Assembly (NCBI RefSeq): GCF_000768705.1
Contig: NZ_AVPJ01000004.1
Location: 248,001 to 312,000, forward strand
DNA from: Knoellia sinensis KCTC 19936
GTDB lineage: Bacteria > Actinomycetota > Actinomycetes > Actinomycetales > Dermatophilaceae
Direction of reading: 5' to 3'
DNA: 64,000 bases
The notes beneath the pieces were generated by a model. That model was given only the letters and a program-made list of their open reading frames with translations. It did no database searches and was not told the DNA's origin. Below are positions 46,599 to 63,946 of this stretch, piece by piece. Within the stretch, counting starts at the first letter, position 1. The number at the start of each line of letters is the position of its first letter. The position numbers and the translations under genes are program-made.

Positions 46599-46603
46599 CG
46601 ACG

Positions 46604-46609: not shown

Positions 46610-46615
46610 GGAACG

Positions 46616-47116: not shown

Positions 47117-47118
47117 CG

Positions 47119-47142
47119 GTGAGTGTTATGCATGTTACTCAC
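47119..47142. promoter_or_regulatory. 24-bp dyad upstream of the second MerR gene
   Basis: Arms GTGAGT and ACTCAC flank a central ATGCAT, with GTT between on both sides. It starts 3 bp after the DUF151 stop. A second dyad ATGTA-GT-TACAT lies at 47223-47234, downstream of the start of transcription. Their size and symmetry suit a MerR-type or other dimeric regulator. Confidence 0.5.
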
Positions 47143-47172
47143 GACACGCATGAGGTTACGGTCGAGTGGTAG

Positions 47173-47201
47173 TTGACCCCGGGTTCTCAGCGCCCTACCG
47201 T
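47173..47201 (+). promoter_or_regulatory. Promoter of the second MerR gene
   Basis: TTGACC (47173-47178), a 17-nt spacer and TACCGT (47196-47201) form one of the best -35/-10 pairs in the window. Start near 47208; leader of ~67 nt with AGCAGGAGG before the GTG. Confidence 0.65.
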
Positions 47202-47274
47202 CACTTTCAGAGAACGACGTCCATGTAGTTACATCAGCGCGCGACACCGCGCCGCCGGGCAGCAGGAGGTTGGC

Positions 47275-47850: not shown

Positions 47851-47868
47851 CCGCTTCGACCACATGAC

Positions 47869-47895
47869 GGCGCGCACCCAAGACGGGTGCGCGCC
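47869..47895 (+). terminator. Terminator after the second MerR gene
   Basis: Perfect 11-bp stem GGCGCGCACCC / GGGTGCGCGCC, 5-nt loop, followed by GTTTGTT. The T-rich tail makes it a classic intrinsic terminator. Confidence 0.85.
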
Positions 47896-47923
47896 GTTTG
47901 TTACCCTGTCCGTGCCGCAAACA

Positions 47924-48013
47924 CCGTGCGGGAGAGTCCCTGGTCCTTCACCGGAGCCGGGGCGCCGAAGGGGCAAACTCCCCGGAACCTCTCAGGCGCA
48001 AAGGACTGCACGG
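47924..48013 (+). ncRNA. Glycine riboswitch (single aptamer) before gcvP
   Basis: P1 pairs CCGTGC (47924-47929) with GCACGG (48008-48013). The conserved glycine-aptamer core is present: GGGAGAG, GGCGCCGAAGGGGCAA, CCTCTCAGGCGCAAAGGAC. Only one aptamer is visible, not the common tandem. Downstream, GGCAC (48018-48022) can pair with GTGCC (48061-48065) over a GC-rich segment and may be the expression platform. TACCCT at 47902-47907 is a possible -10. High glycine should turn on gcvP. Confidence 0.92.
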
Positions 48014-48091
48014 ATCAGGCACCTCTGAGACGGCCCCGGCCGCGACAGAAGGGGAGGCCCGTGCCCACCCGTGCGCCAGGAGCCTCACCAC

Positions 48092-50980
48092 ATGACTGAC
48101 ACCACGTTGAACTCGCCCCAGCTGCCCGCCTTTGCCGGTCGCCACATTGGTCCGAGCGATGACGACATCGTCGAGATGCTCGCGACCATCGGTCGATCGA
48201 GCATCGACGACCTGACGCACACAGCGATCCCCGCTGCAATTCGTGCCACGTCGACCATGTCCATCACGGCTGCGGATTCCGAGTCCGCCGTCGTTGCGGA
48301 ACTGCGCACCCTGGCGGCGCGCAATCAGGTGCTCACATCGATGATTGGTCTGGGCTACTACGGGACGATCACCCCCGCGGTGATCCAGCGCAACGTCCTC
48401 GAGAACCCTGCTTGGTACACCGCCTACACCCCCTACCAGCCGGAGATCTCCCAAGGTCGCCTCGAGGCTCTCCTGAACTTCCAGACGGTGGTCAGCGACC
48501 TCACGGGGCTGACCACCGCGGGTGCATCCCTGCTCGACGAGGCCACCGCCGCAGCCGAGGCAATGACCCTCATGCGCCGCTCGAGCAAGGCGGCCGCAGA
48601 CGCGGTGCTTCTCGTCGATGAGGCGGTCTTCCCCCAGACCTTGGCGGTGATGCGGACCCGCGCGCTGCCCCTGGGCATCGAGATCGTGGTGACGGACCTG
48701 TCCGACGTCACGTCGGGTGAGGAACTCGAGGTGGCAGCTGGGGGGCGCGCCGTCTTTGGCGTCCTCGTGCAGTACCCCGACCTGCATGGTCGTCTTCGCG
48801 ACCACCGCGCCCTCGCGGACGCGGCACACGGGTCCGGCGCGCTCGTCACCGCGGCTGCCGACCTGATGGCCCTGACTCTGGCGACGGCACCGGGGGAGTG
48901 GGGCGCAGACATCGCCATCGGCACCACCCAGCGTTTTGGGGTGCCCATGGCCTTCGGCGGGCCGCATGCCGGGTACATGTCAGTCCGGCAAGGCCTTGAG
49001 CGCACGCTTCCGGGACGTCTGGTCGGGGTCTCCGTCGACGCGACCGGTGCGCCGGCCTACCGGCTTGCCCTCCAGACGCGGGAGCAGCACATCCGTCGCG
49101 AGAAGGCGACGTCCAACATCTGTACCGCTCAGGTCCTCTTGGCAGTCATGGCGAGCATGTATGCCGTGTACCACGGCCCACGCGGGCTGCGCGCGATCGC
49201 CCTGAACATTCACGCGCATGCGACGAGCCTCGCGAACGCGCTGCGCGCAGGTGGTGTGGACGTCGAGGAACACGACCGCTTCGACACGCTCTCCGTGAAG
49301 GTGCCTGGGCGCGCGGCTGAGGTCACTGAGGCGGCCCTGGCTGAAGGCGTCAACGTCTGGCCTGCCGGCGACGACACAGTGCTCGTCTCTGTCGACGAGA
49401 CGACCACTCTTGCCGACCTGGAGAAGGTCGCGCGTGCCTTTGGCGCAGACGCGCCGTCGAAGGTGCAGGTTGCCGAGCCGGCGTGGGGCGAGGCACTGCG
49501 CCGGACCTCCGAGTACCTCACGCACCCGGTGTTTTCGAGCCACCACAGCGAGACCGCGATGCTTCGCTACCTCCGCCGCCTCTCGGACCGAGACTTTGCT
49601 CTGGACCGGGGCATGATCCCGCTGGGGTCATGCACCATGAAGCTCAACGCGACGACCGAGATGCTCGCGATCACGTGGCCGGAGTTCGCGCACCTGCACC
49701 CGTTCGCACCACTGGACCAGACCGTCGGGATCCGCACTCTCGTGGACCAACTCGAACAGTGGCTGTGCGACATCACTGGCTATGACGCAGTGTCCCTCCA
49801 GCCGAACGCCGGGTCGCAGGGTGAGTTCGCCGGGCTCCTCGCGATCGCGGCGTACCACCGCTCGCGCGGCGATGCCGAGCGCAACGTCTGCCTCATTCCG
49901 GCAAGCGCGCACGGCACCAACGCCGCCAGTGCGGTGATGGCCGGCATGAAGGTCGTCGTCGTCAAGACCGACGTCATCACCGGCAACGTGGACATGGACG
50001 ACCTCAAGGCAAAGGTCGAGGAACACCGTGACGATCTGGCCGCGATCATGGTCACGTACCCGTCGACCCATGGTGTCTTCGAGGACACCATCAGTGACCT
50101 CTGCGCGATGGTTCACGATGCCGGTGGGCAGGTCTACGTCGACGGTGCCAACCTCAACGCCATGGTCGGGCTCGCTCAGCCGGGGCGCTTCGGTGCTGAT
50201 GTCTCCCACCTGAACCTGCACAAGACGTTCTGCATCCCGCACGGTGGGGGTGGCCCCGGCGTGGGTCCGGTGGCGTGTCGCGAGCACCTCGCACCGTTCC
50301 TCCCGAATCACCCCCTCGATGTGGAGGCCGGCCCGGAGACGGGCGTCGGCCCGATCTCGGCAGCGCCCTACGGTTCCGCAGGCATCCTCCCGATCTCCTG
50401 GGCCTACGTCCGACTCATGGGAGCCGCTGGCCTGCGACGCGCCACGGAGGTCGCGGTCCTCAACGCCAACTACGTCGCCGCTCGGCTGCGCGATCACTAC
50501 CCGGTGCTCTACTCGGGTGAGGGAGGACTCGTCGCCCACGAGTGCATCCTCGATGTGCGTCCCCTCACGAAGGACACCGGCGTCACGGTCGACGACATCG
50601 CCAAGCGCCTCATCGACTACGGGTTCCACGCCCCGACCATGTCCTTCCCCGTCGCTGGCACCCTCATGGTGGAGCCGACCGAAAGTGAGGACAAGGTCGA
50701 ACTGGACCGCTTCTGCGACGCCATGATTGCGATCCGCGGCGAGATCACGGAAGCAGGGGCGTCGGGCAACGCTGCGACGAGTGTCCTCCGTGGGGCGCCT
50801 CACACGGCCGTCTCGTTGGCAGGGGAGTGGGACGTCGCCTACAGCCGCCAAGAGGCTGCCTTCCCCAAGGGTGTCGATCCGCTCGCGAAGTACTGGCCAC
50901 CCGTGCGCCGCATCGATGGTGCCTACGGGGATCGCCACCTCGTGTGTTCGTGCCCGCCTCCAGAGGCGTTCGAGGACTGA
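48092..50980 (+). CDS. gcvP: Glycine dehydrogenase (decarboxylating), P protein
   Basis: A 962-residue PLP enzyme that decarboxylates glycine and hands the aminomethyl group to the H protein. The N-terminal half starts with [20 protein letters not shown] and contains [14 protein letters not shown]. The C-terminal half has the PLP lysine K711 in [18 protein letters not shown], and [14 protein letters not shown]. It is one fused chain, as in most actinobacteria. The ATG at 48092 has CAGGAGCC at the right distance; a GTG at 48071 would add 7 residues. Controlled by the glycine riboswitch. Confidence 0.97.
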
Positions 50981-51007
50981 TTCGAGCGCGGCCGTATGCC
51001 GTGGGGT

Positions 51008-51037
51008 CGCCGCGTGAGCCTCTCGGCTCACGCGGCG
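51008..51037. terminator. Bidirectional terminator between gcvP and sbcC
   Basis: Perfect 13-bp stem CGCCGCGTGAGCC / GGCTCACGCGGCG with a TCTC loop. The sbcC stop codon lies inside the hairpin. Confidence 0.75.
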
Positions 51038-54000
51038 CTCTCGACTCCCGGTCCCGAGATCGAGACGGTGCTGCCGCTGGCGGTCTTGCGCACGAGCAAC
51101 TGGCTGGTGATCCGGCTCCGGAGCTCGCCGACGTGGGAGACGACGCCGACCGCACGCCCGCCTTCGCGGAGCGAGTCGAGCACGGAAATGACCTGCTCGA
51201 GGCTCTCGTCGTCCAGGGTGCCGAACCCTTCGTCGACGAAGAGTGTGCCGAGGTCGAACCCGCCGGACTCTTCCCGGACGGCGTCGGCCAGTCCGAGGGC
51301 GAGGGCCAACGACGCCATGAACGCCTCGCCTCCGGACAAGGTCGAGGTCTCCCGGCTCACGCCGGTCCACTGGTCCAGGACCCGAAGACCCAGGCCGCTA
51401 CGGGCTCCGCGGGCCGCCAACCGGTCCGAGTGTTCCAGCGTGTAGCGCCCATCGCCCATGATCCGCAGCCGTTCATTGGCCAGCCGGGCCACCTTGTCGA
51501 GGCGAGATGCCAGCACATAGGACGTGAGGCGCATCCGCAGGGTGTTGTTGACCCCACCTCCGGTGAACGCGTCAGCGAGATCCTTGATGCGGTGGTGGCG
51601 CACCAGCGCAGGTCCGGCTGCGTCGAGCCCTTTGAGGAGGCTCGTCCGGACGGTCACGAAGGACTTGCGCGCCGTAGCAGCCTCAGTCTGGGCCGCCTGA
51701 GCAGTGAGTACCGCCGCACGTGCTCGAGCCGCGTCCGCCGTCGCTTCGTGCACATCTGGCTCCTCCGCCGCCTCGGCAGCGAGCACTTCGGGGTCATCGA
51801 GGACGGATTGGGCGGCAGCACGAGCCCGGTCGTGTCCCTGAATGCGGTCGCGCAGCCTGTCGAGCTCGTTCGGCATCATCAGGGCGTGCGTGACACCGTC
51901 GATGGAGTCGAAACCTGCCTCGTGTGCGGCCGACTGGGCATCCGCGCGCACATCGTGGAGCCGCGTCTCGGCGACCTCATGGTCGTGCGAAGCGTTCCGC
52001 CATGCCTCCACCAGGCGGATCACCTGACTGTGAGTCGCGGTGATCTCTCGAACCATCGCCACGTCGTCGGCGCTCAGCGTCAGGGTGCGGCCGGTGGATG
52101 GAGGACTGCCAGGGGCGCACGGGCACGACTCATGGGACTTCAGGAGGTCGGCCAGCGCGGTTGCCTCATGGCAGTCGGCTGACCGCTCCTGGCCAGAGAT
52201 GGTTCTCGCTTGTGCGAGGTCGCGTTCCGCGGCAACGACCGACTCATCCACCCGCGCGAGCCGTGCACGCGCGGAATCGAGTGACTGCTGGCTCGCCTGA
52301 AGGCGGGCTGCGCGGTCGGAGATCAGCGCGAGATCGCGCTGGGCCGTCTCGGCGGCTTCGGCCAGGGACGTGAGGGCGATCTCCTGGACGGAGGCCACGT
52401 CAAGCACCTGCAGTGCGTGCTCGAGTCGGGCCTGCGCAGCGGTGGCGCGCGCATCAGCGTCCTGATGAGCCTGCACGAGGGCAGCGTGCACGCGCCGGGC
52501 TTCGTCGAGTTCCGCACCCGACACACGATCACGGGATGTCGTGGGCTCGGGGTGATCGTCCGAGCCACACACTGGACATGGCTCGTCATCGAGGAGGCCC
52601 TCGGCGAGCTCGGCTGCCATCTGGGACAGACGCCGTGCGAGCAGATCCTGTTCGTGATCACGAGCATCCTGCGCGGCCGTTCGTGTCTCGGCGGCAGCCC
52701 GCCTCAGAGCATCGAGCTTGATGGCGTCGTCCACGGTGCGCCGGGCCAGCTCATGCCTATCCCGAGCAGCCGCGGCCAGAACAGTTGCTCCTTCCCGCGA
52801 GGCCACGGCGTCCGCCGAATCACCGACCATGGCCTCCGCCGACGTCACCGCGAGGGCCGCGGAGGCTCGGTCGGCGTCCGCGCGCCCGAGGACCCTCGTG
52901 GCCTTCTCGATCAGGGCGATGAGTTCCTCGGTCCTGCGCTCCCGATGGAGCCGGGACTCTGACAGCCGACCCGCCTCGCGCAGCGCGTCATCGTGACCGT
53001 GCATCGCCGCGAGTGCGTCTTGGGGCCGGCCGAAGAGCGTGCCCGCTTCCTCCGGGTGACTTGGGGAGCCGATGGCCCCGTCAGTCGCGGCGGAGAAGAT
53101 GTCGACGAGGCGACTCACCGAGTCCATGGCGACGTCGAGTGCCTGGCGCGCGCCCTGGAGAGTGACCTCCTCGCGCTGAATGGTGGCAAGGTGCCCGCGC
53201 AAGGAGACCGCGCGTTGCCCCGCGTCCAGGCGGGCGCGATCCGCGATCAGCTCCTCGGCGGACGCATCGAGATCGGCGAGGGTGCGCCGAGCCGTAGTGG
53301 CACGCTGACGCAGAGCTGTGACGGCTCGTGCCTGCTCGGCGCGCTCGGCAGTGGCGCCTTCCACCGCAATGGCGGCATCGAGGGCAACCATCATCTGGGA
53401 GAGGTGCTGGTCAAGATCGGCACCGACGGACTCAAGGTGAGCCCGGATACCCTCCGGTGACGCTGGGTCGACCGCGAGCTCATCCGCAGCAGGACGGTCC
53501 GGCGCTGGAGCGTTGGTGCTCGTCCCGGCGTGTGGGCCTCCGGCGGTATCCACCGGAGGCGAACCGGAACTCACCCCACTGGCGGCAAGCACGTCCCCGA
53601 GCCGGGCCAGGTCGGTGTCGATTCCGGCGCGCAGGGCACCGACCGCGGCCTCGCTCTCGCGCCGTTGCTCGACGAGCCAGGCCTCGATGTCGGCGAATCT
53701 GCTGATGTCGAAGAGCTTCTCGAGCAGGGCTCGCCGATCCTCGTCCTTGGCGGTGAGGAAGGCTGCAAACTCGCCTTGGGGCAGCATGGCAACCTTGGCG
53801 AACTGCTCCTTGCCCATGCCGATGACGTCGTGGAGAACCTCCGCAGTCTCATCGTTGCGGGTCGACACCACTGCCCACTCAACGCCCCGGAGCTCCGACA
53901 GGGTCACTGTGGCAGGGGCATCGACCGTCCCCACGCCGCGCTTCTTGGGCCGCGCGTGCTGGGGGGAGCGATGCAGTCTGAATCGCCTTGTGCCAGAAGT

Positions 54001-54246
54001 GAACTCGAGCTCGATAGAGGGCGTCGCTGTGGGCGCCGCGTGGTCACTGACGATGCCACGCCGGTCCCGAAGGCCCGGGACGTCGGCAAAGAGGGCGAAG
54101 CAGATCGCGTCGAGCAGGCTGGTCTTGCCCGCCCCGGTGGGCCCGTGGATGAGGAAGAGCCCCTGAGCCGTGAGTGCATCGAAGTCGACCACCACTTCGT
54201 CGGGGAAGGGACCGAACGCAGTGGCGACCAAGCGGTGAATCCTCAT
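51028..54246 (-). CDS. sbcC: Exonuclease SbcC (Rad50-type ATPase)
   Basis: A 1072-residue SMC-like ATPase that with SbcD cuts hairpins and DNA ends. Walker A HGPTGAGKTSLLDAI near residue 35; two long coiled coils; the zinc hook CPVCGSDDHPEP near residue 557; the ABC signature TSTLSGGEAFMASLALALGL; Walker B LGTLFVDEGFGTLDDESLEQ. Length is usual. Its ATG overlaps the sbcD stop (ATGA). The two proteins act as a complex on the nucleoid. Confidence 0.95.
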   Translation of the reverse strand: MRIHRLVATAFGPFPDEVVVDFDALTAQGLFLIHGPTGAGKTSLLDAICFALFADVPGLRDRRGIVSDHAAPTATPSIELEFTSGTRRFRLHRSPQHARPKKRGVGTVDAPATVTLSELRGVEWAVVSTRNDETAEVLHDVIGMGKEQFAKVAMLPQGEFAAFLTAKDEDRRALLEKLFDISRFADIEAWLVEQRRESEAAVGALRAGIDTDLARLGDVLAASGVSSGSPPVDTAGGPHAGTSTNAPAPDRPAADELAVDPASPEGIRAHLESVGADLDQHLSQMMVALDAAIAVEGATAERAEQARAVTALRQRATTARRTLADLDASAEELIADRARLDAGQRAVSLRGHLATIQREEVTLQGARQALDVAMDSVSRLVDIFSAATDGAIGSPSHPEEAGTLFGRPQDALAAMHGHDDALREAGRLSESRLHRERRTEELIALIEKATRVLGRADADRASAALAVTSAEAMVGDSADAVASREGATVLAAAARDRHELARRTVDDAIKLDALRRAAAETRTAAQDARDHEQDLLARRLSQMAAELAEGLLDDEPCPVCGSDDHPEPTTSRDRVSGAELDEARRVHAALVQAHQDADARATAAQARLEHALQVLDVASVQEIALTSLAEAAETAQRDLALISDRAARLQASQQSLDSARARLARVDESVVAAERDLAQARTISGQERSADCHEATALADLLKSHESCPCAPGSPPSTGRTLTLSADDVAMVREITATHSQVIRLVEAWRNASHDHEVAETRLHDVRADAQSAAHEAGFDSIDGVTHALMMPNELDRLRDRIQGHDRARAAAQSVLDDPEVLAAEAAEEPDVHEATADAARARAAVLTAQAAQTEAATARKSFVTVRTSLLKGLDAAGPALVRHHRIKDLADAFTGGGVNNTLRMRLTSYVLASRLDKVARLANERLRIMGDGRYTLEHSDRLAARGARSGLGLRVLDQWTGVSRETSTLSGGEAFMASLALALGLADAVREESGGFDLGTLFVDEGFGTLDDESLEQVISVLDSLREGGRAVGVVSHVGELRSRITSQLLVRKTASGSTVSISGPGVESAA

Positions 54247-55421
54247 GCTGCCCCGGAGGTGTGACGAGACGAGGCCTCGCCCTCGCCCGCTGTGGCGTTG
54301 CGCCGCAGGCGTGCACCCTCGACTGCCTCACCGAGGAGACCACGCTCGCCGGCGTCGGGACCGTGGCCACCGCGCACATGCGTGAGGAAGTCGCAGCACA
54401 CGTCAAGGTCGGATCGCTCCGTGAGCGACGCGGCATACGCACTCATCGTCGTGACCGAGCCACTCGGCGCGAAGCGGAGATCGAGTGTGTAGGGGAAGCG
54501 GGCACGCAAGCGCTCCATGGCGCCCAGCGGCCTGATCGGGTCGGTCAGCGTCACTTGGCACCACGCTGACTCGGCGTCTGAGTGCCGGCGGTCCGTGAGC
54601 AGCTCGTCGAGGGTCCCTCGCAACAGTGCGAGCGGCCTCTCGACGGGGGCTGCCACGAAGTCCACGTTCGGGGAGGCGTCAGAGAGATCGACGATCCAGG
54701 AGCCCTTGACGTGGGACGCCTCACTGAAGGACATGGCTACAGGAGACCCGGAGTAGCGCACGCCCTCTGCCACTTGCTGACGACCGTGGAGATGCCCCAG
54801 CGCCACGTAGTCGACGCCGTCGAAGACGTCGGGAGGAACGGCTGCCACGCCTCCCACGGCGATGTCACGCTCGGAGTCGCTGGTGGCACCACCGGTGACG
54901 AAGGCGTGCGCCATGACCACGGACTTGGCGGCTGAGCCGGCGCCGAGGGCGTCACGAACTCGACCCATGGCTGCCCGCAGCACCCCCGCATGGGTGCGCT
55001 CGGACGAGCCGAGCGACCCGGCCGACAGCGACGGCTCGAGGTACGGAAGGGGGTGGATCGCGACACCCGACACCCAGACCGGGCGGCCGATGTCGTCCAG
55101 GTTGGTCCGAATGTGGAGCCCAGACTTCTCGAGCAGCCGGGCAGCGAACCCCAATCGGATGGCGGAGTCGTGGTTGCCGCTGGACAGCACCACGGCTGCT
55201 CCCGCGTCGATGAGCCGTTCGACTGCGTCGGACAGCATGGCCACGGTGTCTGGCGCGGGGAGGGCCCGGTCGTAGACATCGCCGGCCACGAGCACGGCAT
55301 CGATCGACTCGGACCGCACGACCTCGACGAGATGGTCGAGGTAGGCCGATTGCGCACTCTGGAGACCCACCTGGTGGAAGGCCCGGCCCAGATGCCAGTC
55401 GGACGTGTGGATCATGCGCAC
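54243..55421 (-). CDS. sbcD: Exonuclease SbcD (Mre11-type nuclease)
   Basis: A 392-residue metallophosphoesterase. The metal-binding motifs are IHTSDWHLGRAFHQ, VLVAGDVYDRALP, VLSSGNHDSAIRLG, VVMAHAFVTGG and YVALGHLHGRQQV, all in the right order. The C-terminal part is the SbcC-binding/capping domain. I chose the GTG at 55421 because TAGCCT (55434-55429, minus strand) lies 7 nt before it; an ATG at 55415 is the alternative. First gene of sbcD-sbcC. No LexA box is seen here. Confidence 0.95.
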   Translation of the reverse strand: MRMIHTSDWHLGRAFHQVGLQSAQSAYLDHLVEVVRSESIDAVLVAGDVYDRALPAPDTVAMLSDAVERLIDAGAAVVLSSGNHDSAIRLGFAARLLEKSGLHIRTNLDDIGRPVWVSGVAIHPLPYLEPSLSAGSLGSSERTHAGVLRAAMGRVRDALGAGSAAKSVVMAHAFVTGGATSDSERDIAVGGVAAVPPDVFDGVDYVALGHLHGRQQVAEGVRYSGSPVAMSFSEASHVKGSWIVDLSDASPNVDFVAAPVERPLALLRGTLDELLTDRRHSDAESAWCQVTLTDPIRPLGAMERLRARFPYTLDLRFAPSGSVTTMSAYAASLTERSDLDVCCDFLTHVRGGHGPDAGERGLLGEAVEGARLRRNATAGEGEASSRHTSGAA

Positions 55422-55428
55422 GTCACCG

Positions 55429-55434
55429 AGGCTA
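55429..55434 (-). promoter_or_regulatory. -10 element (TAGCCT) of sbcDC, leaderless spacing
   Basis: On the minus strand TAGCCT lies 7 nt before the GTG at 55421. No ribosome site is visible, so a leaderless transcript is likely. Confidence 0.5.
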
Positions 55435-55579
55435 GGCGCGGCCACCGACAGGGGCGGTGACCGAAACGCGAAATGTCGCACGTTCCCATCGCGTGCTGCA
55501 CGCAGGGGTGATTGAGTTGGCCACGAGCACGTAGGACGAACCGAGCCGACTGAACCGACGAGAGCCGGAGGTGATGGGC

Positions 55580-57061
55580 GTGGGTACCGAGGTCAGCGCA
55601 CAGAGCTACACGCGCGAGGAGCGCCAGCGGTATCGAGAGAAGGTGCGACAGAACCTCGACGTCTTCGAACGGATGCTCAACAAGGATTCGTTCGAGTTCG
55701 AACGGCCGTTGACCGGCCTCGAGATCGAGCTCAACCTCGTCAACGGCGACTATGACCCGCATTTCGCCAACGCGGAGGTGCTGCACGCGATCGCCGACCC
55801 CGGCTACCAGACCGAGCTCGCGCAATACAACATCGAGCTCAATGTCCCGCCCAGGCCGCTCCCGGGAGACTCGGCACTCGAGCTCGAGGTGGACCTGCGG
55901 CAGTCCCTCAACGACGCCGATGCCAAGGCTCGCGAGGTGGGCTCCCGCCTGGTGGCCATCGGCATCCTGCCGACGATCATGCCGGAGCACTACGAGGGAG
56001 AGTGGATCAGCGACAACAACCGCTACACCGCCCTCAACGACTCCATCTTCGTCGCGCGCGGCGAGGACATCTACCTCGATATCAGTGGCCCCCACGGGGA
56101 ACGGGTCGCGACGTACTGCGACTCGATCGCGCCGGAGTCCGCCTGTACGAGCGTCCAGTTGCACCTCCAGGTCACGCCTGGCGACTTCGCCGACTACTGG
56201 AATGCAGCCCAGGCCCTCTCACCCATCCAGGTCGCCGTCGCCGCCAACTCTCCGTTCTTCTTCGGCCAGCGCCTCCACGCCGAGACCCGGATCGAGCTGT
56301 TCAAGCAGGCGACCGACACTCGACCGATCGAACTCAAGAATCAAGGCGTCCGGCCTCGTGTCTTCTTTGGAGAGCGCTGGATCACGAGCATCTTCGACCT
56401 GTTCGAGGAGAATTCGCTCTACTTCCCGGCACTGCTTGCCGAGACCACGGACGAGGACCCAATGGCGAGGCTGGACGCGGGCCAAGCCCCGGACCTTGCC
56501 GAGTTGCGTCTGCACAACGGCACGGTCTATCGCTGGAACCGCCCGATCTACGACATCGTCAAGGGACGTCCCCACCTCCGGGTCGAGAACCGCGTCCTCC
56601 CGGCTGGGCCGACGATCGCCGACACCCTGGCCAACGCTGCGTTCTACTACGGCGCGGTCCGTCGGCTCGCCGAAACCGATCGACCCGTATGGACCAAGAT
56701 GAGCTTCGCGGCCTGCGAGGAGAACTTTCACCGCGGCGCCCGCGACGGGATCGAGGCACGGCTCTATTGGCCGGGCTTCGGAGAACTTGGCGTTGACGAG
56801 CTCGTCCTCCGGCATCTGCTGCCCCTGGCCCACCAGGGACTGGAGTCCTGGGGGGTTTCCCAGGCGGTCCGCGACCGATTCCTGGGGATCATCGAGGCGC
56901 GCTGCCAAGCCGGCGTCAACGGCGCCACCTGGCAGACCGAGGCGGTGCGACGATTCGAGGCCAAGGGAGCCGACCGTCGGCTGGCGCTGCACCAGATGCT
57001 CGAGATGTATGCCGAACACATGGGCAGCAACGAGCCGGTGCACACCTGGCCGCTGCCCTGA
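55580..57061 (+). CDS. GCS2-family glutamate--cysteine ligase-like protein
   Basis: A 493-residue ATP-grasp-like carboxylate-amine ligase of the GCS2 type. Conserved parts: RPLTGLEIELNLVNGDYDP (acidic metal site), QYNIELNVPPRPLPGDS, SACTSVQLHLQVTPGDFADY, and the basic NGTVYRWNRPIYDIVKGRPH. It may make gamma-glutamyl amides, but actinobacteria use mycothiol, so glutathione synthesis is doubtful. Of three in-frame starts (55571, 55574, 55580) the GTG at 55580 has the right distance from GGAGG. The C-terminus is a helical domain that differs from EgtA. Confidence 0.8.
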   Translation: MGTEVSAQSYTREERQRYREKVRQNLDVFERMLNKDSFEFERPLTGLEIELNLVNGDYDPHFANAEVLHAIADPGYQTELAQYNIELNVPPRPLPGDSALELEVDLRQSLNDADAKAREVGSRLVAIGILPTIMPEHYEGEWISDNNRYTALNDSIFVARGEDIYLDISGPHGERVATYCDSIAPESACTSVQLHLQVTPGDFADYWNAAQALSPIQVAVAANSPFFFGQRLHAETRIELFKQATDTRPIELKNQGVRPRVFFGERWITSIFDLFEENSLYFPALLAETTDEDPMARLDAGQAPDLAELRLHNGTVYRWNRPIYDIVKGRPHLRVENRVLPAGPTIADTLANAAFYYGAVRRLAETDRPVWTKMSFAACEENFHRGARDGIEARLYWPGFGELGVDELVLRHLLPLAHQGLESWGVSQAVRDRFLGIIEARCQAGVNGATWQTEAVRRFEAKGADRRLALHQMLEMYAEHMGSNEPVHTWPLP

Positions 57062-57080
57062 GCCGGCACTGAGGCGGGCC

Positions 57081-57698
57081 TCAGCCGAGGCTGTTCCAGA
57101 GCTTGATGGCAGGTTGTTCGCGTTCGTACTCCAACACGCTCACGGAACCGGCGTCGAGAAGCACCTTGGCTGCGAACCGTGATTGCTCCCGCAGGAACAC
57201 GGTGGCGAGGATGCGCAGGGCGTGCCCATGCCCGAAGAGCAACACATCCCGCGTGGCCAGCACCGGCCAGGCCCGGAGCAGGATGCGTGAGGCTCGCGCG
57301 GCGACCTCCTCGACCGTCTCGCCCGGAGTCGCGCCCGGGACGACACCGTGCTCGAACGCGGCCCAGTCGTAGCCCAGTTCGGCACGGATCTCCTTCGTCG
57401 TCCGCCCCTCGTAGCCACCGTAGTCCCACTCGACGAGGTTGGGATCGACCTCGGCAGAACCGAATCCGGCGATTTCAGCAGTTCGGCGCGCCCGCCGCAT
57501 CGGCGACGTGAGAACGAGACCGAAGTCGAATTCTGCGAGGCGGGTGGGGAGCGTGGCTGCGTCGGCCTCGCCCTGCGGCGTCAGTGGGATGTCCGTCGTT
57601 CCGGTGTGCTGACCTGATTCGCTCCACTCGGTCTTGCCGTGACGGACAAGGACGATGCGGCCTTCGGGGACAGCGGGTGCGCCAGTCATGAACGTCAC
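57081..57698 (-). CDS. Histidine phosphatase superfamily protein
   Basis: A 205-residue phosphoglycerate-mutase-like phosphatase. The catalytic histidine is in IVLVRHGKTEWSESGQHTG, the general acid region is LVEWDYGGYEGRTT, and the second histidine is in LLFGHGHALRILA. The substrate is unknown; EWDYGGYEG is the form seen in broad-specificity acid phosphatases and GpmB-like proteins. GTG at 57698 or ATG at 57689 may be the start. Divergent from the DUF1697 gene, only 17 bp apart. Confidence 0.9.
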   Translation of the reverse strand: MTFMTGAPAVPEGRIVLVRHGKTEWSESGQHTGTTDIPLTPQGEADAATLPTRLAEFDFGLVLTSPMRRARRTAEIAGFGSAEVDPNLVEWDYGGYEGRTTKEIRAELGYDWAAFEHGVVPGATPGETVEEVAARASRILLRAWPVLATRDVLLFGHGHALRILATVFLREQSRFAAKVLLDAGSVSVLEYEREQPAIKLWNSLG

Positions 57699-57703
57699 TC
57701 TGG

Positions 57704-57710
57704 CAGGATC
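57704..57710. promoter_or_regulatory. Overlapping divergent -10-like hexamers around GGATCC
   Basis: CAGGAT (57704-57709, plus) is 6 nt before the ATG at 57716. GATCCT (57710-57705, minus) is 6 nt before the GTG at 57698. Neither is a perfect TAnnnT, but the spacing equals that of the other leaderless genes here. Confidence 0.3.
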
Positions 57711-57715
57711 CCTGT

Positions 57716-58258
57716 ATGCCGCGCTACCTCGCCTTCCTGCGCGCCATCAACCTCGGAGCCGTCCGCAAGGTGCCCATGGCGGAACTGCGCGACCAGTTGG
57801 CGGGTGCTGGTTTCACGGATGTCGAAACCCACATTCAGACGGGCAACATCGCCCTGACGTCGCGCATGCGCTCCGCTGCGAAGGTGGAATCGGCCATCGA
57901 GGCTCTGCTGGGGGAGTGGCGCGGGTTCGACGTCCCGACCATGGTGCGCTCGCCCGCGGAACTGCACGACCTCGCAGCACGGATCGAGATGGCACCCACC
58001 ATGGTCGGCAGCCAGCCACGCCGGTACGTCGCCTTCGCCAAGGGCGAGGTGAGCCCGGCAGCGGCGGCTGCCCTCACGGCATACAAGGACACTCCGGAGC
58101 GTTGCTGCATCGTGGGCAGAGACCTCCTTCTCGAGTACGACACCTCCTTCCCCAATGCACGGCTGGCCGGGGCCAAACTCGAAAAGCTGGCCGGCACCGC
58201 ACTCACGACGCGCGACATCAAGGTCGTCCGCGCCCTCGACGCGAAGTGGGCGTCATGA
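57716..58258 (+). CDS. DUF1697 protein
   Basis: A 180-residue protein of the DUF1697 family, recognised by its start PRYLAFLRAINLGAVRKVPM and the QTGNIALTS motif. Later parts: YVAFAKGEVSPAAAAAL and the C-terminal ALTTRDIKVVRALDA. The function is unknown; the family is common in soil bacteria. Start codon ATG without a ribosome site. Confidence 0.9.
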   Translation: MPRYLAFLRAINLGAVRKVPMAELRDQLAGAGFTDVETHIQTGNIALTSRMRSAAKVESAIEALLGEWRGFDVPTMVRSPAELHDLAARIEMAPTMVGSQPRRYVAFAKGEVSPAAAAALTAYKDTPERCCIVGRDLLLEYDTSFPNARLAGAKLEKLAGTALTTRDIKVVRALDAKWAS

Positions 58259-58384
58259 GGGTGCCTGGCCCATGCCCCGACACTGGAGGATCGCCGCTCC
58301 GTCGCCAGCCGAGCCTGAGCAGCATCGGTCTTGCGGCCACCTGGTCATGACATCTCACCCACGCAACACGAAACGGAGCACCCG

Positions 58385-58852
58385 ATGACCGACACCACGC
58401 ACGATCGGGCCCAGCAGGAAACCGGTGGGACCGGACCAGGGCACCGATCGGTCACGCTGACCCGCACGTCCCATGGCGAGCTCGACGTGACGAACGTCCG
58501 CGGCGGAACCATCCACATCGGCACGGGGGAATCGGACGACTTCACGCCGGTCGAGCTGCTCCTGGCGGCGATCGCGGGCTGCAGCGCCGTCGACGTCGAC
58601 TTCATCACGGCGAAGCGGGCCGAACCCACCGAGTTCACGGTCACGAGCGAGGGTGACAAGGTCAAGAGCGCTGACAAGGGCAACCACATGGACAACCTCG
58701 AAGTGACCTTCCGCGTCCGCTTCCCGGAGGGGCCCGAGGGTGACAAGGCGCGCGAGATGCTGCCGCGGGCCATCGCTCAGTCTCACGACAGGCTGTGCAG
58801 CGTGTCGCGCACGGTCCAGCTCGGCACGCCGGTCACCATGCGCGAGGTCTGA
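58385..58852 (+). CDS. OsmC-family protein
   Basis: A 155-residue OsmC/Ohr-fold protein, a thiol peroxidase family acting on organic hydroperoxides. The two redox cysteines are present: LLLAAIAGCSAVDVDFIT and SHDRLCSVSRTVQLG. TPVELLLAAI is the family signature. ACGGAGCACC is the ribosome site. It is 3 bp before the YrdC-like gene, so the two are co-transcribed. No OhrR regulator is adjacent. Confidence 0.9.
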   Translation: MTDTTHDRAQQETGGTGPGHRSVTLTRTSHGELDVTNVRGGTIHIGTGESDDFTPVELLLAAIAGCSAVDVDFITAKRAEPTEFTVTSEGDKVKSADKGNHMDNLEVTFRVRFPEGPEGDKAREMLPRAIAQSHDRLCSVSRTVQLGTPVTMREV

Positions 58853-58855
58853 GCA

Positions 58856-59479
58856 GTGGCGCGATACCTCGACGTTCACCCTGTCGATCCGCAGCCGCGC
58901 CTTATCGGCCAGGCGGTTTCCGCGTTGCGTGAGGGTGGCCTCATCGCCTATCCGACCGACTCGGGCTACGCCCTCGGCGCTGCGCTGGGCAACCAGGAAG
59001 CCAAGGATCGCATCCGCGACATTCGCCGCCTCGACGACAAGCACCACTACACCCTGGTGTGCGCTGACTTCGCCCAGCTCGGGCACTTCGTCCACGTGGA
59101 CAACGCCGTCTTCAGGGCCGTGAAGGCCTCGACCCCCGGCCCCTACACGTTCATTCTCCCGGCCACGGGGGAGGTCCCGCGCAAACTCCTCCATCCCAAG
59201 AAGAAGACCGTGGGCGTCCGCATCCCCGACTACCCCGTGGTGCGCGCTCTCCTCGCCGAATTGGGGGAGCCGATCCTGACCTCGACCCTCATCCTCCCCG
59301 GCGAGACCGAACCGATGACCGATGGCTGGCAGGTCAAGGAGGAGCTCGACCACGCCGTCGATGTCGTCATCGACGCGGGGGAGGCCGGGCGCGAGCCCAC
59401 GACCGTCGTCGACCTGTCTGGCGACGTCCCGGAGGTGCTGCGCGTCGGGGCCGGGGACCCCAGTCGCTTCGAGGCGTGA
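58856..59479 (+). CDS. Sua5/YciO/YrdC-family protein (threonylcarbamoyl-AMP synthase-like)
   Basis: A 207-residue YrdC-domain protein. Visible parts: GGLIAYPTDSGYALGAALGN, IRRLDDKHHYTLVCADFAQL, TPGPYTFILPATGEVPR and VGVRIPDYPVVRALL. The family makes threonylcarbamoyl-AMP for tRNA t6A or has a related activity. The sequence resembles the YciO branch more than the essential TsaC, so tRNA modification is not certain. GTG start; overlaps the acetyltransferase gene by 4 bp. Confidence 0.88.
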   Translation: MARYLDVHPVDPQPRLIGQAVSALREGGLIAYPTDSGYALGAALGNQEAKDRIRDIRRLDDKHHYTLVCADFAQLGHFVHVDNAVFRAVKASTPGPYTFILPATGEVPRKLLHPKKKTVGVRIPDYPVVRALLAELGEPILTSTLILPGETEPMTDGWQVKEELDHAVDVVIDAGEAGREPTTVVDLSGDVPEVLRVGAGDPSRFEA

Positions 59480-60279
59480 GCATCGGACACATTGCCGAAC
59501 CGGGGTTCCCGAGCCTGGCGCTGCAGTCGTTCGGTCGCCACGGAGTCGCGCCCAGCCGCGGCTACGTCACCCTCGGTCACGAGGACGCGCTGATCAGCCA
59601 CTACCCACCCGAACCGGATCGCCCTTTCGTCGTGCACTGGACGCGGTCCGAACGAGACGCCGACGAGCTTTTCGACGAGCTCACGGCCTACCTGCGTGAT
59701 GCCGGTGCGCGGAGCGCGGAATGGTGGTTCCGCGACGACTCGACACCGGAGGGGCTCGAGGACGTGGTCCTCGCGGCAGGAGCCACGACCGTCGAGGACC
59801 AGGTGTGTGCGGCGCGTGCAGTGGGCGGCAGCCTGCCCGAGATCGCGCCGGGAGTCAGGGTCACCCTCGTCCAGGACGGCGAGGCTCTCGAGGCCGCAGT
59901 CGGCATTGGTGTGACGGTGTTCGGGGAGCCCGATGCCGTCGATCGGAGCAGCCTTCTGGCCGAGGTGCTTGACGATCTTGACCGCGGAACAGGGGCTTGG
60001 GTTCTGGGATGGCTCGGGGATGAACCAGTGGGCAGGGCGCGCGTCGGTTTCGAGTGGGGTATCGCGCCCCTCGTGGGAGCCGCCGTCCTGCCGCACGCCC
60101 GCCGCCGGGGCGTGTATGCCGCGATGCTCGCGGCCCGTCTCGACCTCGCCGCGACGGCTCGATGCCACACGGCCGTGGTCAAGGCACGTCGATCGCAGTC
60201 GCTGCCCGTGCTTCTGCGCGAGGGTTTCGTCCAGGTCGGCCTGGAACGCGCTCACCTCTTGGGACTGCCCGCGGCCTGA
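59476..60279 (+). CDS. GNAT-family acetyltransferase
   Basis: A 267-residue protein with a C-terminal GNAT domain: GWLGDEPVGRARVGFEWGIA, then PLVGAAVLPHARRRGVYAAM with the acetyl-CoA loop R-R-x-G-V-Y, and SQSLPVLLREGFVQVG. The N-terminal ~130 residues look like a second, degenerate GNAT-like half (PPEPDRPFVVHWTRSERDAD). The substrate is unknown. GTG start overlaps the YrdC-like gene. Confidence 0.82.
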   Translation: MSIGHIAEPGFPSLALQSFGRHGVAPSRGYVTLGHEDALISHYPPEPDRPFVVHWTRSERDADELFDELTAYLRDAGARSAEWWFRDDSTPEGLEDVVLAAGATTVEDQVCAARAVGGSLPEIAPGVRVTLVQDGEALEAAVGIGVTVFGEPDAVDRSSLLAEVLDDLDRGTGAWVLGWLGDEPVGRARVGFEWGIAPLVGAAVLPHARRRGVYAAMLAARLDLAATARCHTAVVKARRSQSLPVLLREGFVQVGLERAHLLGLPAA

Positions 60280-60295
60280 GCGGTGGGCCCGCATG

Positions 60296-60342
60296 CGTCA
60301 CCCCCATCGGTGCATGAGCCGTGTGGACCGATGGGGGTGACG
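60296..60342 (+). terminator. Hairpin terminator after the acetyltransferase gene
   Basis: Perfect 16-bp arms CGTCACCCCCATCGGT (60296-60311) and ACCGATGGGGGTGACG (60327-60342) with a 15-nt loop. It ends the run OsmC-YrdC-GNAT. Confidence 0.8.
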
Positions 60343-60441
60343 ACGGCCCTGCTCGGGAGGAGGCGAGCCGGGCGTGGCGGCGGTCAGGACGGAACTCCCT
60401 GGTCCGTGCCGAACGCCGCACCATCCACCGTAGGAAGCGTC

Positions 60442-60506
60442 GGTCAACGCCGGGTTCGGGCCAGGTCAAGAGTTGGTATGCCGGGTCAAGACTTCGTTCC
60501 CCGGTC
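60442..60506. repeat. Repeated GGTCAA words in a convergent gap
   Basis: GGTCAA occurs at 60442, 60464 and 60484, and GGTCA at 60502, spaced 18-22 bp (about two helical turns). The region lies between the 3' ends of two genes, where no promoter is expected. The rest of 60343-60517 shows nothing else. Confidence 0.35.
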
Positions 60507-60517
60507 AGCTGGCAGCG

Positions 60518-61024
60518 TCACCGGCTGAGGAGGGCGGCAAGGGTTCCTCCCAGCTCCGTCGCCCGCGCACGAGCGCCCTCGTCGACGTCGCCCATGACCT
60601 CCAGGACGTCCGATGCCTGACGCCAGCCCAGTGCCTGAACGATGGACGTCACGGAGCGAACCGCACCGGTGACGTCGTAGCGCCCATGGACCCAGAGGCC
60701 GAACGGCCGCTTCGCCGTCGGACCGGCGGTGGGGGAGTTGTCGGCCCCGCCGGAGTCATCCAGCGCGCCGCCGATCTCCAGGAACGTGGAGTCGAAGAAG
60801 TGCTTGAGCGCGCCGGACATGTAGCCGAAATTGGCGGGCGTCCCGAGGAGATACCCGTCCGCTCCGAGGACGTCGTCCGACGTGGCGTCCAGAGCAGAGA
60901 CCACCTCAACGTCCACACCCTCGATGTCCGGGTGCTGCGTTCCCTCGAGCGCCGCGTCGAGCAGGGCGCGGGTTCCGCGCGTCGGGCTGTGGTGGACGAC
61001 AAGGAGACGGGCCATGGTTCTCAT
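60518..61024 (-). CDS. Flavodoxin/NADPH-dependent FMN reductase-family protein
   Basis: A 168-residue flavodoxin-like protein. The start MARLLVVHHSPTRGTRALLD matches the phosphate-binding loop of FMN reductases. ADGYLLGTPANFGYMSGALK is the second FMN-contact region. Also FGLWVHGRYDVTGAVRSV. It is probably a cytoplasmic NAD(P)H-dependent oxidoreductase; the electron acceptor is unknown. ATG at 61024 or 61015. It is divergent from the zinc-ribbon microprotein (32 bp). Confidence 0.85.
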   Translation of the reverse strand: MRTMARLLVVHHSPTRGTRALLDAALEGTQHPDIEGVDVEVVSALDATSDDVLGADGYLLGTPANFGYMSGALKHFFDSTFLEIGGALDDSGGADNSPTAGPTAKRPFGLWVHGRYDVTGAVRSVTSIVQALGWRQASDVLEVMGDVDEGARARATELGGTLAALLSR

Positions 61025-61043
61025 CGTGCCTGCTGCGACGTCC

Positions 61044-61049
61044 TAGGGT
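61044..61049 (+). promoter_or_regulatory. -10 element (TAGGGT) of the zinc-ribbon microprotein operon
   Basis: TAGGGT lies 7 nt before the ATG at 61057, again with leaderless spacing. The same CCTAGG core gives TAGGAC on the minus strand, a possible -10 for the flavodoxin gene. Confidence 0.5.
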
Positions 61050-61056
61050 GACTCCC

Positions 61057-61185
61057 ATGGCCGACCTGACCGAACCCTGCCCGAACTGTGGCCAGCTCAT
61101 GCGCTGGGAAACCTCGCACGAACGGTGTGACGGGTGCGGGTACATCCGCCCGTGCTGTGAGGGTGCGCCTTGCCCGATTCCGTGA
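61057..61185 (+). CDS. 42-residue zinc-ribbon microprotein
   Basis: A very short open frame with seven cysteines: PCPNCGQ (C8, C11), ERCDGCGY (C24, C27), then PCCEGAPC (C34, C35, C40). CxxC-x12-CxxC is a classic zinc-ribbon arrangement. The reality of the gene is supported by a leaderless -10 box 7 nt before the ATG and by a 4-bp overlap (GTGA) with the kinase-like gene. Function unknown; it could bind RNA, DNA or a protein partner. Confidence 0.75.
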   Translation: MADLTEPCPNCGQLMRWETSHERCDGCGYIRPCCEGAPCPIP

Positions 61186-62072
61186 GGCACGACGAGGATC
61201 TGATCGCTCGACTGACGGCGGAGCAGCGAGCTGTTGTGGGGGAGTGGCTCCCCGAAGTCGTTGCCCTCAAGGACCACAGTTGGGGTTTGACGGGAACGAT
61301 CGTCCTTGAGGCGCTGTCCGGAGGTGGGCGCGTCATCATCAAGGCCTGCGACGCCACGGACGGGCACTTCGCACGTGAGCTGCGAGCCCACCGGGAGTGG
61401 CTGGGCCCGTGGGTCGCGGCCGATCGGGCTCCACGGCTTCGTCACGTGGACGAGGAGGTGCGTTTGCTCGTGACCGACTTCGTGCCAGGCGATCTCGTGC
61501 AGGGGAGTGGTGCCGAGTTCGAACCGGACACCTATCGGCAGGCAGGCGCCCTGCTGGCCGCTCTCCACGAACAGCACGTCGTCACGGACGAGGACTACTG
61601 GGAGCAGGAGCAGGAGGCGGCTCTGGCATGGCTGGACAAGGAGCACCGGATCCAACCCGATGTGGAGGCTCGGTTGCGCGCGATCGTCGAAGCGTGGCCG
61701 ACGCCTGCCAGCGAGCTGGTCCCGACGCATGGCGACTGGCAGCCGCGCAACTGGGTCATCAGCGATGGGACAGTGTCGGCGATCGACTTCGGGCGGGCCG
61801 CGCTGCGACCGGCGTTCACCGACTTCGCCAGGCTTGCCGCACAACAGTTTCGGGGGAACCGTGACCTTGAGGCCGGCTTCATCGAGGGCTACGGCTCAGA
61901 CCCGCGACTCGATGACGGCTGGCAGCGCCAGCGACTCCGAGAGGCCATCGGCACAGCGGTGTGGGCCCACCTCAAGGGCGACGTCACCTTCGAGCAACAG
62001 GGACATCGCATGATCGAGGAGGCACTGGCGGACGAGGAGGCACTGGCGGACGTGGAGGCAGCGCATGGGTGA
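61182..62072 (+). CDS. Aminoglycoside phosphotransferase-family kinase-like protein
   Basis: A 296-residue protein with the APH/choline-kinase fold. The N-lobe has GGGRVIIKACDA with the ATP-binding lysine. The catalytic loop is THGDWQPRNWVI (HGDxxxxN) and the metal motif is AIDFGRAAL. It could phosphorylate a small alcohol or sugar; antibiotic resistance is not implied. GTG at 61182 overlaps the microprotein stop; a TTG at 61170 would add 4 residues. The next gene overlaps by 8 bp. Confidence 0.85.
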   Translation: MRHDEDLIARLTAEQRAVVGEWLPEVVALKDHSWGLTGTIVLEALSGGGRVIIKACDATDGHFARELRAHREWLGPWVAADRAPRLRHVDEEVRLLVTDFVPGDLVQGSGAEFEPDTYRQAGALLAALHEQHVVTDEDYWEQEQEAALAWLDKEHRIQPDVEARLRAIVEAWPTPASELVPTHGDWQPRNWVISDGTVSAIDFGRAALRPAFTDFARLAAQQFRGNRDLEAGFIEGYGSDPRLDDGWQRQRLREAIGTAVWAHLKGDVTFEQQGHRMIEEALADEEALADVEAAHG

Positions 62073-62412: not shown

Positions 62413-62505
62413 TGTCAGTCGGCGCAATGCCGGGCGGTCGTAGCCACCCCGAGGTTCCGGCGGGGGACCAGGGGTGGCGGGCCGGACGTCATGGCGACTG
62501 CACTT

Positions 62506-62533
62506 ACTTGACATAATGTTGATTATCGGCGTT
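62506..62533 (-). other. dif: Chromosomal dif site (XerC/XerD recombination site)
   Basis: On the minus strand this 28-bp site reads CGCCGATAA, a 6-bp centre, then TTATGTCAAGT, matching the known actinobacterial dif consensus at about 26 of 28 positions (only the first two bases differ). It is the recombination site where chromosome dimers are resolved and marks the replication terminus. The local AT-rich stretch stands out in a GC-rich region. xerD is in the same window. Confidence 0.9.
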
Positions 62534-62538
62534 CCAAT

Positions 62539-63478: not shown

Positions 63479-63946
63479 TTAGTTCTGCGCCGGCGGTCGT
63501 GCTTCTCGATTCCTGATCGGTCTGGTGACCGCCTTGGTGACACACGAGGGAAGTTCGCCGTCCGACTCCCCCGCGCGCCGTCGATACGTGCTTGGTGGCA
63601 TTCCCACGAGTTCGGCGAAGCGTGTGCTGAACGTGCCCAGGGATGAGAAGCCCACGGCGAAACACACGTCCGTCACGCTCATGTCCCCCCGTCGGAACAA
63701 CGCCATCGCCCGCTCGATGCGTCGCGTCATGAGATAGCTGTAGGGCGACTCTCCGTACGCCGCCTTGAACGACCGGCTCAAATGTCCGGAAGACATGTGC
63801 ACGTCACGGGCCAGGGCTTCAACGTCCAGTGGCTGCGCGAACTCACGGTCCATCCGATCCCGAACGCGCCGTAGCAGGGCGAGGTCCCGCAAGCGGTCCG
63901 CGGAGACGGACGATGTGGTCGGTTCGGTCACGCCCCGATTCTGCAC
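63479..63946 (-). CDS. AraC-family transcriptional regulator
   Basis: A 155-residue protein that is almost only the AraC DNA-binding domain. Two helix-turn-helix units are visible: PLDVEALARDVHMSSGHLSR, then SVTDVCFAVGFSSLGTFSTR with FAELVGMPPSTYRRR. There is no clear sensor domain, so it is a short AraC member. GTG starts at 63946 or 63931. It leads the set AraC-VOC-immunity-like. 63947-64000 holds no feature I can support. Confidence 0.88.
   Translation of the reverse strand: MQNRGVTEPTTSSVSADRLRDLALLRRVRDRMDREFAQPLDVEALARDVHMSSGHLSRSFKAAYGESPYSYLMTRRIERAMALFRRGDMSVTDVCFAVGFSSLGTFSTRFAELVGMPPSTYRRRAGESDGELPSCVTKAVTRPIRNREARPPAQN

What the first reader, a model, noticed from the sequence alone, without database searches (positions are those of the whole stretch)
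62506..62533. Chromosome terminus: a near-consensus actinobacterial dif site
The sequence shows a CGCCGATAA half and a TTATGTCAAGT half around a 6-bp centre on the minus strand. Established work gives a 28-bp actinobacterial dif consensus; by my reading about 26 positions agree. Gene direction changes here: conserved genes to the left mostly run plus, genes to the right run minus.
Basis: partly seen in the sequence, partly recalled or inferred. Interest (0 to 1): 0.8.

Follow-up and report, generated by a model that had tools for sequence, protein, structure and literature searches.

The report
Chromosome dimer-resolution site with guide motifs
This is the dif site, where the cell separates chromosomes that have become joined, of a soil actinobacterium; the site itself is ordinary, but it sits where a short DNA signpost (GGGGGAG) reverses direction, which gives a testable guess at how actinobacteria steer their DNA pump to it.

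Summary
The 28 bp at 62506-62533 (minus strand) are a dif site: XerC arm AACGCCGATAA, centre TCAACA, XerD arm TTATGTCAAGT. It is the only match in the 3.99 Mb draft genome at up to 3 mismatches. The core is in 92 of 99 family genomes, 84 of 85 of good quality. In 9 of 9 measurable relatives it lies about 0.49-0.54 of the chromosome from dnaA. By kinship the genome is a Knoellia. The proposed GC-skew test is inconclusive: skew is flat. A sharper marker works: GGGGGAG points toward dif 267 times and away 6 times over about 770 kb in two Knoellia genomes, flipping across dif. Toward exceeds away at 40 of 40 chosen dif loci outside the order. GGGNAGGG, the E. coli FtsK guide, is not polarised in the Knoellia relative and only partly in this contig. 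A GGGGA[G/C] element lies within 100 bp on the XerD side at 90 of 177 sites, against 6 of 177 on the XerC side; this site has a weak version. I read GGGGGAG as an actinobacterial KOPS. dif is a known kind; the guide and XerD-side element look like a new variant.

The parts
62506..62533 (-). dif site, 28 bp: AACGCCGATAA-TCAACA-TTATGTCAAGT
   Evidence: conserved in relatives
62523..62533 (-). XerC-binding arm AACGCCGATAA (by position; binding not shown)
   Evidence: arm assignment follows the established dif layout
62517..62522 (-). 6-bp central region TCAACA
   Evidence: centre base 13 is the most variable of the 28, 0.28 bits; base 12 has 0.51; base 26 in the XerD arm has 0.35
62506..62516 (-). 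XerD-binding arm TTATGTCAAGT (by position; binding not shown)
62462..62468 (+). GGGGGAC, a weak version of the XerD-side guide element, pointing at dif, 37 bp from the XerD edge
   Evidence: of 9 Knoellia genomes (this one included) 7 have the stronger GGGGAG form on this side within 100 bp, one (G007) has none, and this genome has only the C variant
62413..62538 (.). Gap between two convergent ORFs that holds the dif site
   Evidence: ORFs 62065-62412 + and 62539-63051 -; Pfam: none for the first, Imm5_like for the second
442..61244 (+). 27 copies of GGGGGAG, all on the plus strand and all left of dif, pointing toward it; no minus-strand copy left of dif in the window
63566..63572 (-). First GGGGGAG right of dif, on the minus strand, pointing back toward dif
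28233..29120 (+). xerD, recombinase gene 33 kb from dif
   Evidence: 337.8 bits against TIGR02225, cut-off 329.6; Phage_integrase

Best explanation
The site is the single chromosomal dif. XerC and XerD bind its two arms. When homologous recombination has joined sister chromosomes into a dimer, the septal DNA pump FtsK moves the DNA until it meets XerCD-dif, switches on XerD through its gamma domain, and a crossover at dif separates the chromosomes. In this bacterium and widely across its class I infer that FtsK is steered by GGGGGAG, a KOPS-like motif that points toward dif on both arms, and that a further KOPS-like element on the XerD side of many dif sites loads FtsK next to the arm it must activate. 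Shown here: the site, its uniqueness and conservation, its position opposite dnaA in relatives, the polarity switch, the XerD-side enrichment, and the presence of XerD, a second Xer recombinase and the FtsK gamma domain. Inferred: binding, steering, loading and recombination.
For: Unique match in the genome. The core is found in 36 of 39, 92 of 99 and 130 of 149 genomes, this one counted in each, with no control-pattern hit in those searches. dnaA-to-dif distance is about 0.49-0.54 of the chromosome in 9 of 9 genomes where both lie on one near-complete contig (12 genomes were chosen, this draft and 11 well-assembled ones, and 3 could not be measured; six of the nine lengths are rounded). GGGGGAG toward:away is 110:3 left and 14:0 right in this contig, and 66:2 and 77:1 in G003; the nearest copies that flank the switch are at -1268/+1060 and -852/+404. 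Rearranged or substituted 7-mers are far less polarised (GGGAGGG 67:54, GGGGGTG 95:86, GGGGAGG 117:45). At 40 chosen dif loci of the class, flanks up to 8 kb each side, the ratio is 136:7 and 176:3, with 40 of 40 loci favouring toward. Copies pointing to dif increase with distance from the origin in G003 (20 stretches, rho 0.56, p 0.01). XerD-side element in 90 of 177 sites against 6 of 177 on the XerC side, and 33 on average (at most 45) in 100 dinucleotide shuffles. FtsK gamma, XerD and a second Xer are present. The FtsK gamma recognition helix has nearly the same form at the 31 loci looked at, different from E. coli and Pseudomonas.
Against: No recombination, binding or translocation was tested. 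GC skew gives no switch. This site's own XerD-side element is the weaker GGGGGAC form, the relative G007 has none and G003 also has GGGGA twice on its XerC side, so the near element is neither obligatory nor strictly one-sided. The XerD-side flank is C-rich, so part of the enrichment is composition (shuffle mean 33 of 177). In the motif search the far control flank reached a log-likelihood of 104 against 128, so that search alone is not decisive. Related genomes are not independent samples. In one family of large genomes (f21) only 1 of 15 has the core, and the motif was not tested there. Position opposite dnaA could not be measured in this draft genome (61 contigs).
Confidence: 0.93

Rival explanations
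1. The 28-mer is an Xer site left by, or belonging to, an integrated mobile element that exploits XerCD (an att site), not the chromosomal dif.
For: Extra dif-like sites, probably on plasmids or mobile DNA, exist in some relatives, for example three in G011.
Against: There is one site in this genome. It is the switch point of motif polarity over more than 300 kb, and the same core is in 92 of 99 family genomes, once in 88 of these 92. Seven ORFs within about 4 kb left and 1.5 kb right were scanned and none matches a phage family.
Confidence: 0.02
2. GGGGGAG is polarised for a reason other than FtsK steering, for example as a Chi-like recombination hotspot or through replication-strand mutation bias.
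For: Chi-type motifs are also polarised from origin to terminus (recalled). No binding data exist for this motif that I know of.
Against: A mutational bias should also polarise rearranged motifs and GC skew, and it does so weakly or not at all. Related motifs crowd within 10-60 bp of the XerD arm, which fits FtsK, whose gamma domain acts on XerD. The motif contains GGGNAG, the start of the E. coli KOPS.
Confidence: 0.2
3. The XerD-side G-rich element is only a by-product of base composition or of gene ends near dif.
For: The flank is C-rich, and shuffles give a mean of 33 of 177. In the motif search the far control flank also gave a motif with log-likelihood 104 against 128.
Against: 90 of 177 were observed against a shuffle maximum of 45, and the three other side-and-strand classes (6, 7, 6) are below their shuffle means (14.6, 12.9, 16.2). 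The motif search, started from random words, found C-R-G-G-G-G-A-G-n-G on that side.
Confidence: 0.2

Closest known systems
Actinobacterial dif (Frankia alni type, CACGCCGATAATGCACATTATGTCAAGT, quoted in PMC3025954, passage seen)
   Same: Same 28-bp layout; 25 of 28 letters identical
   Different: The first base and two centre bases differ; within the range of the 124 sites compared
E. coli KOPS (GGGNAGGG) and FtsK
   Same: Short G-rich motif containing GGGNAG, pointing from origin to dif with a switch at dif; FtsK gamma domain present. In the 5 kb of E. coli K-12 read, of which 1.2 kb are on the XerC side, the nearest KOPS is on the XerD side; PMC2680272 (passage) gives 124 bp, and three KOPS on the XerD and two on the XerC side within 10 kb
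   Different: The motif here is GGGGGAG; GGGNAGGG is not polarised in G003 (39:41). The gamma recognition helix reads GFAKAGRLMD where E. coli has GYNRAARIIE
Asymmetric activation of XerCD-dif by FtsK (Massey 2004, Bonne 2009; seen only as titles in a reference list)
   Same: The two sides of dif are not equivalent; that the XerD side is the one that matters is recalled
   Different: Those are experiments in E. coli (recalled); here it is a sequence pattern across actinobacteria
AIMS, architecture-imparting octamers (PMC5993296, passages seen)
   Same: Strand-biased motif that increases toward the terminus
   Different: The passages found name no actinobacterial motif; supplementary lists were not available to me

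Membership tests
dif (XerCD chromosome dimer resolution site) | 28 bp: two 11-bp arms around a 6-bp centre, matching the group consensus | tested here: met
dif (XerCD chromosome dimer resolution site) | Single copy per chromosome | tested here: met
   one match at up to 3 mismatches in 3,987,063 bases (draft of 61 contigs)
dif (XerCD chromosome dimer resolution site) | Located opposite the origin | tested here: met
   In relatives: 9 of 9 measurable. In this genome itself dnaA is on another contig (C5), so not measurable
dif (XerCD chromosome dimer resolution site) | At the GC-skew switch | tested here: inconclusive
   Skew flat and noisy
dif (XerCD chromosome dimer resolution site) | At the convergence point of FtsK-guiding motifs | tested here: met
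   GGGGGAG switch; that GGGGGAG is the guide is inferred
dif (XerCD chromosome dimer resolution site) | XerC, XerD and FtsK gamma encoded in the genome | tested here: met
   the second Xer (283.7 bits) was scored only against the XerD model, so its name XerC is inferred
dif (XerCD chromosome dimer resolution site) | Recombined by XerCD under FtsK control | not testable with these tools
   Needs an experiment
KOPS (FtsK-orienting polar sequence) | Points from origin to dif on both arms and switches at dif | tested here: met
   GGGGGAG
KOPS (FtsK-orienting polar sequence) | Denser toward the terminus | tested here: met
   20 stretches of one genome
KOPS (FtsK-orienting polar sequence) | E. coli sequence GGGNAGGG | tested here: not met
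   39:41 in G003, 49:22 in contig C44; toward exceeds away at 28 of 40 class loci
KOPS (FtsK-orienting polar sequence) | Bound by FtsK gamma and orients translocation | not testable with these tools
   Needs an experiment

The most novel reading that the evidence does not exclude
GGGGGAG is the FtsK-orienting sequence of most of the class Actinomycetes, read by a class-specific FtsK gamma helix, and the working dif of this class is a composite: the 28-bp XerCD site plus a KOPS-like loading element placed 10-60 bp from the XerD arm.
Probability: 0.5. Interest if true: 0.65.

Novelty: new variant of a known kind. Interest (0 to 1): 0.5.

Why it matters
GC skew fails in this high-GC genus, and GGGGGAG gives a marker that shows replichore polarity and dif within a few kilobases. 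If GGGGGAG is what actinobacterial FtsK reads, it makes chromosome steering testable in a large class for which I found no guide sequence in the papers searched. The XerD-side element gives a simple test of whether FtsK is loaded next to the recombinase it activates.

Tried and rejected
GC skew as the terminus marker: tried on contig C44, on 20 sampled stretches of G003 and on 220 kb each side of dif in G003; no switch. GGGNAGGG as the guide motif: polarised in C44 (left arm 48:19, right arm 1:3) but not in G003 (39:41), so rejected as the general motif.

A fixed accessory motif beside dif: in Arthrobacter-like sites and a few others a downstream TATTGCATCAGATGA-like and an upstream CTACTTCTACTCC-like motif recur, but this site lacks both and in the set of 124 they are a minority; left as a lead.

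Mobile-element reading of the extra dif-like sites in relatives: an exact pattern with the ACC centre hit 0 viral contigs and the standard core hit 1; a plasmid search gave 10 records with short partial matches, none covering 80% of the query. Not pursued.

Gene-strand switch at the site: not supported to the right (7 plus, 7 minus in 21 kb). A first version of the polarity script timed out with no output and was rerun.

A count mended: one search gave 92 of 180 for the XerD-side element, but its four groups were made non-redundant only within themselves and three named records are also same-genus genomes. One search recounted over all groups together: 186 loci given, 2 without enough flank, 7 dropped as more than 70% alike, 177 kept, 90 and 6.

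Papers searched for the motif or for guides near dif; most listings were capped. In one search, which asks for both GGGGGAG and FtsK anywhere in a text, 2 papers of the held library have both: PMC12453122, where the letters stand inside a synthetic gene and a protein sequence (passages), and PMC2804712, a cancer paper seen only in the listing. No paper was read whole; I saw search listings and found passages only (the terms found nothing).

Full report
WHAT IS THERE. The minus strand of 62506-62533 reads AACGCCGATAA-TCAACA-TTATGTCAAGT. It differs from the recalled actinobacterial dif consensus at the first two bases only. No other place in the window matches within 3 mismatches and none of 100 shuffles does. 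The 26-base version with up to 3 mismatches occurs once in the 3,987,063-base draft genome. The site lies in a 126-bp gap between convergent ORFs: 62065-62412 (+), without a Pfam match, and 62539-63051 (-), Imm5_like. The first of these ORFs is unsupported, and the crude gene caller picked neither.

WHOSE GENOME. The window is contig C44, bases 248001-312000, of a 61-contig draft. Three same-genus genomes have contigs carrying the site whose lengths equal those of named records from the exact-match scan: 4,221,782 (Janibacter sp. HTCC2649), 466,655 (Knoellia locipacati) and 458,510 (Knoellia sp. Soil729); their flanks are the same too. I therefore place it in Knoellia as the tool's taxonomy draws that genus; the species is not identified.

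CONSERVATION. The core is found in 36 of 39 mixed relatives (up to 3 mismatches), 92 of 99 genomes of the family (84 of 85 good ones; up to 2 mismatches), 130 of 149 of the order, 164 of 197 of the class (up to 3 mismatches) and 41 of 198 of the phylum; this genome is counted in each. The reversed control pattern hit no genome and three genomes. One site alone is found in 88 of the 92 and 126 of the 130. Aligning 124 non-redundant sites shows the conserved block is bases 0 to 27, with a weak extension of two bases (A, G) past the XerD arm and lesser signals at -3, -1, 33 and 40; the usual first two bases are A, A. This site's two mismatches to the recalled consensus are therefore the norm here.

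POSITION. Of 12 genomes searched for dnaA (11 chosen for few contigs, plus this one), 9 have dnaA and dif on one near-complete contig; the dif-dnaA distance is about 0.49 to 0.54 of the chromosome in all 9 (G003, G007, G018, G022, G023, G025, G026, G027, G035; six of the lengths are rounded in the output). In the other three (G000, G009, G011) the two are on different contigs.

THE SKEW TEST. In C44 the 310 kb to the left average +0.008 and the 21 kb to the right -0.025; in G003 the sampled stretches average -0.002 before (12) and -0.010 after dif (8), and the 220 kb on each side average -0.008 and -0.005. This is noise, so the test neither supports nor refutes.

A BETTER MARKER. I counted every 6-, 7- and 8-mer pointing toward or away from dif in three arms. 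One family stands out: GGGGGAG. Toward:away is 66:2 and 77:1 on the two 220-kb arms of G003, 110:3 on the left arm of C44, and 14:0 on its right arm, 267:6 in all. In the window 27 copies lie on the plus strand, all left of dif, and one on the minus strand, right of it. The nearest flanking copies are at -1268 and +1060 in this genome and at -852 and +404 in G003. Motifs of the same composition are much less polarised (GGGAGGG 67:54, GAGGGGG 60:32, GGGGAGG 117:45). Gene strand bias (141 plus, 75 minus on the left) is far too weak to explain 110:3. In 20 samples of G003 copies pointing to dif rise with distance from the origin (rho 0.56, p 0.01) and copies pointing away fall (rho -0.58, p 0.008); over these samples the total is 95:9.

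HOW WIDE. I chose 40 dif loci of the class outside the order, from the 164 genomes with a match, with up to 8 kb on each side (some cut short by contig ends). The ratio is 136:7 and 176:3; toward exceeds away at 40 of 40. GGGNAGGG does so at 28 of 40. One family of large genomes (f21; perhaps Streptomyces, by size only) has the core in 1 of 15 and was not examined further.

THE XERD SIDE. After a k-mer count had shown CTCCCC past the XerD arm, an expectation-maximisation motif search started from random words found C-R-G-G-G-G-A-G-n-G, pointing at dif, on the XerD side (log-likelihood 128, against 62 and 68 on the XerC side and 104 for a different, coding-like motif in the far XerD-side control). 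Over 177 non-redundant sites, GGGGA[G/C] within 100 bp pointing at dif occurs at 90 on the XerD side and 6 on the XerC side; 79 of the 90 start 10-50 bp from the arm and 83 lie within 60 bp. Dinucleotide shuffles of the same flanks give a mean of 33 and a maximum of 45 of 177, so base composition explains part of it but not all. Among 9 Knoellia genomes 7 have GGGGAG there, this genome has only GGGGGAC (62462-62468) and G007 has none; G003 also has GGGGA twice on its XerC side. E. coli K-12 has its nearest KOPS on the XerD side in the 5 kb read; PMC2680272 gives 124 bp, and within 10 kb three KOPS on the XerD and two on the XerC side.

MACHINERY. The genome encodes XerD (window 28233-29120, 33 kb from dif), a second Xer recombinase on C61 and an FtsK with a gamma domain. 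The gamma recognition helix reads QRKLRVGFAKAGRLMDLL. It aligns without gaps to the solved E. coli and Pseudomonas domains in that stretch. The three residues changed in the KOPS-blind E. coli mutant (R1300, E1303, E1306; PMC2680272) correspond, by my count from the recalled C-terminus, to R, D and E here. The helix has nearly the same form at 31 of 31 loci: this genome and the 30 best-scoring of the 59 genomes with the domain, of 60 searched in the class. A slightly different helix together with a slightly different motif is what a shifted KOPS specificity would look like; that is inference.

VERDICT. dif is certain in all but experiment (0.93). The guide role of GGGGGAG is likely but unproven, and the loading role of the XerD-side element is a hypothesis. 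I found neither in the papers I could search, which leave out most subscription journals and all supplementary files.

Noticed in passing
L096, L097, L098 (G011), L100 (G019), L181 (G143): Extra dif-like sites with a changed centre (ending CC or GC instead of CA) besides the chromosomal dif. L097 and L098 share similar flanks and a GGGGGAG pointing at the site about 61 bp from the XerD arm, as if dif plus guide travelled as a module.
   Followed up: partly
L182 (first 20 kb of G101 contig 3, 66.9 kb): A probable plasmid with a dif-like site near base 5,540. Right of it seven GGGGGAG copies point at it up to 11,468 and the direction reverses from 11,955, which may mark an origin; left of it there is one copy each way.
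   Followed up: partly
L042, L048, L061, L107, L044, L031 and others, about 10-30 bp past the XerD arm and about 9 bp before the XerC arm: Recurring flanking motifs (TATTGCATCAGATGA-like downstream, CTACTTCTACTCC-like upstream; not both in every site) beside dif in some actinobacteria of different families; absent here.
   Followed up: partly
G003, G007, G018, G022, G023, G026 against G025, G027, G035: dif and dnaA lie on the same strand in 6 of 9 measurable genomes and on opposite strands in 3.
   Followed up: no
L043 (CALQPL010000156.1, 3,753 bases): A MAG contig titled Bifidobacterium breve carries a dif identical to this one in all 28 bases; possibly a binning error.
   Followed up: no
L311 (IMGVR_UViG_3300032282_006300): The only hit of the actinobacterial dif core (exact pattern) in the viral collection, on a 123,830-base contig; may be an Xer-using element or mislabelled host DNA.
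   Followed up: no
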